37,508 bases of DNA from Aquifex aeolicus (GTDB lineage Bacteria > Aquificota > Aquificia > Aquificales > Aquificaceae). Below, piece by piece: positions 34,341 through 34,963 of the stretch. Location of the stretch: contig DQTK01000054.1 in the NCBI GenBank assembly GCA_015662815.1, positions 1 through 37,508 of the forward strand, given 5' to 3'. The first letter of the stretch is position 1, and every line of letters starts with the position of its first letter. Made by a program: the position numbers and the translations under genes. The notes under the pieces were generated by a model, which saw only the letters and a list, made by a program, of their open reading frames with translations, had not been told where the DNA came from and did no database searches.

Positions 34341-34397
34341 TTAAATTTATTTTATCTTTCCCATAACGATAAGGAGTTTACTCGATTGGGCAGGAAA

Positions 34398-34853
34398 TTA
34401 CTCTTTTGCTTGGAGCTGTTCCTTAGCTTCACGTGCCTTCTTTGCCAATTCGGGAGTGTAAGCCTTTCCTTGCCAGAGCATTTTGTAAACTACCTCATAA
34501 GTACTTTCCGCAAGTTCCGTAAGTTCCTTAAACAGCTTATTGAATCCTTCGGATTTATGGGATTTTTCATGACTTTCCAAATTCCTCCAGAAGGTTACTA
34601 TAGGCACCTCCCTGTCTTTTAGGGGATGTTCCGTAGCTTGTCCGGCAGTAGAACCTTCCAGTGATACCCCTCCTGTATTCAAAACGACGAAACCTCCATA
34701 GAATCCATTTTCTGAGTGATACGTTTTCACATGTTCACAAAGATAAGCAAGCCTTTCCATGACTTCGTCTAAGTCTACTCCTTCCTTTAAAACTACGTAA
34801 TTTATGTTTACAATTGTATCGTCCGGTATGTCGGGAATTAGCGGATTCCCAAT
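34398..34853 (-). CDS. Hypothetical SOR/ABM-like (ferredoxin-like dimeric alpha-beta barrel) protein; true start unclear
   Basis: VPIVTFWRNLESHEKSHKSEGFNKLFKELTELAESTYEVVYKMLWQG resembles ABM/sulfur oxygenase reductase motifs. The track starts at 34760; coding-like sequence (IGNPLIPDIPDDTIVNINYVVLKEGVDLDEV) continues in-frame upstream to ~34853 without ATG/GTG/TTG. Confidence 0.6.
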   Translation of the reverse strand: MGNPLIPDIPDDTIVNINYVVLKEGVDLDEVMERLAYLCEHVKTYHSENGFYGGFVVLNTGGVSLEGSTAGQATEHPLKDREVPIVTFWRNLESHEKSHKSEGFNKLFKELTELAESTYEVVYKMLWQGKAYTPELAKKAREAKEQLQAKE

Positions 34854-34963
34854 ACATTTTACTCACCTCCTGTTTTTAAGTTATTAGAATTTGGCAAAAA
34901 ATAACAATATTTGAGTAAAAACATATATTACTTGTGTGAATAAAAAAGTAGAATTCTTAAAGT

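What the first reader, a model, noticed from the sequence alone, without database searches (positions are those of the whole stretch)
34398..34872. Start-site conflict or frameshift in an SOR/ABM-like small gene
On the minus strand a textbook SD (aggagg, 34871-34866) sits 8 nt before ATG 34857-34855, but that ATG frame gives an unlikely peptide (MYWESANSRHTGRYNCKHKLRS...). The +1 frame is coding-like and runs into the main ORF: IGNPLIPDIPDDTIVNINYVVLKEGVDLDEV-MERLAYLCEHV..., with no ATG/GTG/TTG before 34760. Options: sequencing error, real frameshift mutation, programmed +1 shift near ATG.T.ATT.GGG, or an ATT start as known for infC.
Basis: partly seen in the sequence, partly recalled or inferred. 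Interest (0 to 1): 0.6.

Follow-up and report, generated by a model that had tools for sequence, protein, structure and literature searches.

The report
One-base frameshift in SOR-like gene
A small Aquifex-family gene, probably for a sulfur-related enzyme, carries one extra base right after its second codon that no readable relative has, so the odd reading frame is an ordinary recent mutation or assembly error and not a new way of starting translation.

Summary
In detail: on the minus strand an ideal Shine-Dalgarno and ATG (34857) lead into a nonsense frame, while the +1 frame is coding and runs into the ORF at 34760. Orthologs settle what it is. Every ortholog readable at its 5' end (about 28 distinct sequences) starts at the homologous ATG, and the nearest relatives continue ATG-TAC-GGA-AAT (MYGNPLIP...). 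The window reads ATG-TAT-T-GGG-AAT, exactly one extra T (34851 or 34852). Codons 3-33 are still conserved with mostly synonymous change, so the break is recent or artefactual. The ATT start, the Met at 34760 as native start, and programmed frameshifting are not supported.

Error and true mutation cannot be separated without reads. True mutation is slightly favoured because the gene is dispensable in this genus: a 93%-identical relative lacks exactly the 555-bp segment carrying it, an Aquifex aeolicus-like genome has an independent one-base deletion in it, and its operator-like palindrome is decayed here.

The protein is an uncharacterised, single-domain, roughly 150-aa member of the SOR/ABM alpha-beta-barrel superfamily, with residues aligned to SOR's iron ligands His86, His90 and Glu114. 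That family is more interesting than the frameshift.

The parts
34866..34871 (-). Shine-Dalgarno AGGAGG, 8 nt before the ATG
   Evidence: Sequence; most orthologs have the same SD and a similar spacing
34855..34857 (-). Native start codon ATG
   Evidence: Homologous to the ATG of the orthologs
34851..34852 (-). TT where orthologs have one pyrimidine: the single extra T that breaks the frame after codon 2 (which of the two cannot be told)
   Evidence: ATG TAT T GGG AAT here against ATG TAC GGA AAT in G003, G014 and G001
34735..34857 (-). Out-of-frame 40-aa reading from the ATG to TGA
   Evidence: Translation; no counterpart in orthologs
34398..34850 (-). Remaining 150 codons and stop of the SOR-like gene, in the +1 frame; conserved
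   Evidence: Ortholog alignment A1; synonymous changes outnumber nonsynonymous in codons 3-33
34758..34760 (-). Internal Met codon (codon 34), the mechanical ORF start; not the native start
   Evidence: ORF list; the 31 codons before it are conserved
34902..34915 (-). Decayed copy (CTCAAATATTGTTA) of the upstream palindrome TWAGAATATTCTWA, at the same -58..-45 position as the perfect copy in G003
   Evidence: 4 mismatches, chance level here; 0-3 in nearly all orthologs, though 3 is itself near chance
34356..34910 (.). 555-bp segment holding the whole gene that is cleanly absent from the 93%-identical relative G006
   Evidence: Flanks abut in G006 contig C7
34737..34739 (-). Cys codon aligned with or next to SOR Cys31 (invariant in the family)
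   Evidence: role of Cys31 from PMC7398979
34557..34571 (-). His-x3-His (HEKSH) aligned with SOR iron ligands His86 and His90 (invariant)
34494..34496 (-). Glu codon aligned with SOR iron ligand Glu114 (invariant)

Best explanation
The gene starts at the SD-preceded ATG 34857 and its orthologs encode about 152 aa (MYGNPLIPDIPDD...). A single extra T after codon 2 shifts the frame, so as written only a 40-aa nonsense peptide is made, perhaps with weak reinitiation at an internal Met giving a truncated protein. The insertion is specific to this genome. It is either a recent true inactivating mutation in a dispensable gene (about 55%) or a consensus error of the draft assembly (about 40%). It is not a translational control device. 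Shown: the extra base, the conserved start and the conserved upstream peptide. Inferred: the choice between mutation and error, and loss of product.
For: All orthologs readable at the 5' end start at the homologous ATG and lack the extra base. Codons 3-33 differ from G003, G014 and G001 by 13-15 synonymous against 3 nonsynonymous codons. For true mutation: the whole gene is absent from 93%-identical G006 with flanks joined; G001 carries an independent 1-nt deletion near residue 72; only 37 of 64 family genomes gave a match; the operator-like site is decayed here. For error being possible: the genome is a 153-contig draft, and one other contig (L143) holds a gene with five frame breaks.
Against: No reads or second assembly of this species were available. 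The nearest partial relative, G002, has a contig that ends inside the gene (window 34489). The rest of the gene shows no decay, which an old pseudogene would show.
Confidence: 0.94

Rival explanations
1. Sequencing or assembly error alone: the living organism has an intact gene. (This is one of the two arms of the best explanation.)
For: Isolated one-base difference in a 153-contig draft; no other decay in the gene; another contig, L143, is heavily frame-broken.
Against: The draft's frame-break rate (7 of 483 conserved genes) is no higher than in the near-closed G001 (9 of 484), and no other conserved gene of this 37.5-kb contig was found broken. The site is not a long homopolymer.
Confidence: 0.4
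2. Programmed or tolerated +1 frameshifting just after the start codon makes the full protein.
For: The downstream frame is fully conserved.
Against: No ortholog has the extra base. The site AUG UAU U GGG has no stop or known shift-promoting codon, and the slipped P-site tRNA-Tyr would have to pair with AUU (general knowledge).
Confidence: 0.03
3. Initiation at ATT 34853-34851 (infC-like) in the coding frame.
For: ATT lies in the coding frame close to the SD.
Against: Orthologs use the ATG at about 8-nt spacing; ATT would be at 12 nt, and no ortholog has an ATT there.
Confidence: 0.02
4. The Met encoded at 34760 is the native start and the upstream reading is fortuitous.
For: It is the first ATG/GTG/TTG of the mechanical ORF.
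Against: Orthologs start 33 codons earlier and the upstream peptide is conserved; it forms the first beta strand of the predicted fold.
Confidence: 0.01

Closest known systems
Sulfur oxygenase reductase (SOR; PF07682, NF047630)
   Same: Weak but repeated similarity over the N-terminal half. Residues aligned with iron ligands His86, His90 and Glu114, and a Cys at or next to Cys31, all essential in SOR (PMC7398979), are invariant in this family.
   Different: About 150 aa against 307-336; scores below the curated cut-offs (18.3 of 25 and 14.1 of 400 bits). A separate true SOR exists in G001.
Antibiotic biosynthesis monooxygenase domain (ABM, PF03992) and dimeric alpha-beta barrels
   Same: The predicted fold matches ABM-type dimeric ferredoxin-like barrels (SnoaB, YgiN, IsdG and others; E about 1e-6 to 1e-5).
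   Different: Longer, with an invariant His-x3-His motif, Glu and Cys; only 4-22% identity to the listed hits.
Ordinary frameshifted genes in draft genomes
   Same: Single-base indel in an otherwise conserved gene; frame breaks occur in about 1.5-2% of conserved genes here.
   Different: Falls right after codon 2, so a gene caller moves the start instead of splitting the gene.

Membership tests
SOR (PF07682 / NF047630) | Score above the curated family cut-off | tested here: not met
   18.3 bits against 25 (Pfam) and 14.1 against 400 (NCBIfam); in 61 genomes only the true SOR of G001 passes
SOR (PF07682 / NF047630) | Mononuclear iron ligands His86, His90, Glu114 | tested here: met
   Aligned residues H94, H98 and E119 invariant in 15 of 15; the alignment is weak and iron binding is not shown
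SOR (PF07682 / NF047630) | Essential Cys31 | tested here: inconclusive
   An invariant Cys aligns in hhalign but is off by one in the HMMER alignment
SOR (PF07682 / NF047630) | Two-domain subunit of about 310 aa in a 24-mer shell | tested here: not met
   About 150 aa, a single domain; oligomer not testable
ABM-like dimeric alpha-beta barrel superfamily | Ferredoxin-like fold of the dimeric-barrel class | tested here: met
   Model pLDDT 79.7, pTM 0.65; the listed Foldseek hits are of this class; dimerisation itself not tested
Programmed +1 frameshift (prfB type) | Conserved shift site across orthologs with a stop or slow codon | tested here: not met
   Extra base unique to the window; no stop or slow codon at the site
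Non-AUG (ATT) start, infC type | Conserved ATT/ATC start at SD distance | tested here: not met
   Orthologs use ATG

The most novel reading that the evidence does not exclude
The Aquificaceae family is a 'half-SOR': a single-domain, homodimeric non-heme-iron sulfur enzyme keeping the Cys/His/His/Glu site of SOR and controlled by a sulfur-responsive repressor through the palindrome TWAGAATATTCTWA. It would be a living relative of the ancestor from which two-domain SOR arose by duplication. The frameshift would be one of several independent inactivations in the genus Aquifex.
Probability: 0.25. Interest if true: 0.55.

Novelty: new member of a known kind. Interest (0 to 1): 0.2.

Why it matters
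For annotation it fixes the true start and length of this gene and shows that an automated call from 34760 loses the first beta strand. The gene family is uncharacterised as far as I could find and carries SOR-like active-site residues in half the length, which bears on how sulfur oxygenase reductase evolved and on sulfur metabolism in deep-branching Aquificaceae. The frameshift by itself is ordinary.

Tried and rejected
The Met at 34760 as native start: rejected by orthologs. ATT start and programmed +1 shift: rejected. An independent copy of the same species: not found; G002's contig ends inside the gene and G004, G005 and G006 gave no match. PDB sequence hits to triosephosphate isomerase and designed PPR repeats were judged chance, since SOR hits recur and the fold search gives ABM barrels. 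No conserved gene neighbourhood across genera was found around the orthologs. Literature searches found no description of this short SOR-like family in the held library. An annotated A. aeolicus record was not held.

Full report
Observation. On the minus strand AGGAGG (34871-34866) precedes ATG 34857 by 8 nt. The ATG frame ends after 40 aa. The +1 frame is open from just after the SD region to the stop at 34398 and includes the mechanical ORF starting at 34760.

What it is. A search of 61 genomes of the order and a scan of GTDB contigs found orthologs in 24 genomes and 15 loci, largely the same set, nearly all Aquificaceae, plus one in Magnetospirillum. All orthologs readable at the 5' end start with an ATG at the homologous position behind a Shine-Dalgarno. 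G003, G014 and G001 read ATG TAC GGA AAT CCT (MYGNP); the window reads ATG TAT T GGG AAT CCG. One extra T (34851 or 34852) accounts for the whole start-site conflict. Read in the conserved frame, the window protein is 85% identical to L027.

Age of the event. Codons 3-33, which lie upstream of the fallback Met, differ from three relatives by 13-15 synonymous and 3 nonsynonymous codons, like the rest of the gene. The reading was therefore under selection until very recently, or still is.

Error or mutation. In a census of conserved genes, 7 of 483 were frame-broken in about 541 kb of the draft and 9 of 484 in G001. A break in any one gene is therefore unsurprising, and the draft is not worse than the near-closed genome. 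The census cannot see breaks in the first few codons. Three facts make a true mutation somewhat more likely. First, in G006, 93% identical over the flanks, the sequences left and right of window 34356-34910 are joined, so exactly the gene and its upstream region are missing. No target-site duplication was seen, and whether this is a gain here or a loss there cannot be told. Second, G001 has its own one-base deletion near residue 72 of this gene; given a break rate near 2% this is a mild coincidence. Third, the upstream palindrome is decayed here, at the same position where G003 has a perfect copy, and it straddles the edge of the missing segment; some intact orthologs also have weak copies, so this is only mild support. 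I put true mutation at about 55%, error at about 40%, anything else at about 5%.

The protein. Pfam SOR matches 14 of 15 members and ABM 10 of 15 at E up to 0.01, with the window protein itself below the SOR cut-off. The predicted structure is an ABM-type alpha-beta barrel half. SOR iron ligands His86, His90 and Glu114, essential by mutagenesis (PMC7398979), align with H94, H98 and E119, invariant here; an invariant Cys lies at or next to Cys31. Most likely function, inferred: a homodimeric non-heme-iron oxygenase acting on a sulfane-sulfur compound. Several members end in a CxxC, which could serve sulfur transfer.

Regulation. Upstream regions of orthologs share the palindrome TWAGAATATTCTWA: GAATAT/ATATTC counts 38 against a shuffle mean of 5.6, though the sequences are related. 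In G001 the best genome-wide sites lie before a YgaP-like membrane protein gene and an outer-membrane efflux gene, with a weaker site between TusA and Fe-S (Hdr-like) genes and another before a rhodanese gene. The first two are conserved in the window's genome. At two mismatches the pattern is not enriched over its reversed control, and a shuffled genome gave top scores near those of the weaker sites, so only the strongest sites are meaningful. A sulfur-responsive ArsR-type repressor is a guess by analogy with sHdrR/SoxR (PMC12423496, PMC10451225); neither paper's text gave a matching motif in my search.

Noticed in passing
G001:C1:1302044-1302486 (L023, L026): The A. aeolicus-like genome has an independent one-base deletion near residue 72 of the same gene, splitting it into two overlapping frames.
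   Followed up: partly
window 34356-34910 against G006:C7 near 13944 (L207): Relative G006, 93% identical, lacks exactly the 555-bp segment carrying the gene; the flanks abut.
   Followed up: yes
Upstream of orthologs; G001:C1 1046704, 478615, 266121; G000:C19:4372, C135:699: Shared palindrome TWAGAATATTCTWA before the SOR-like gene, a YgaP-like membrane gene, an outer-membrane efflux gene and, more weakly, within the TusA/Hdr-like cluster: a possible sulfur regulon.
   Followed up: partly
L143 (G000:C24) 555-2228: Ortholog of a 585-aa G001 protein broken into six frames within one contig: low-quality contig or fresh pseudogene.
   Followed up: no
L028, L029, L030, L032, L033, L036, L037 (C-termini): Many orthologs end in a C-terminal CxxC (e.g. 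HCSSC) that the window, G003/L027 and Thermocrinis copies lack.
   Followed up: no
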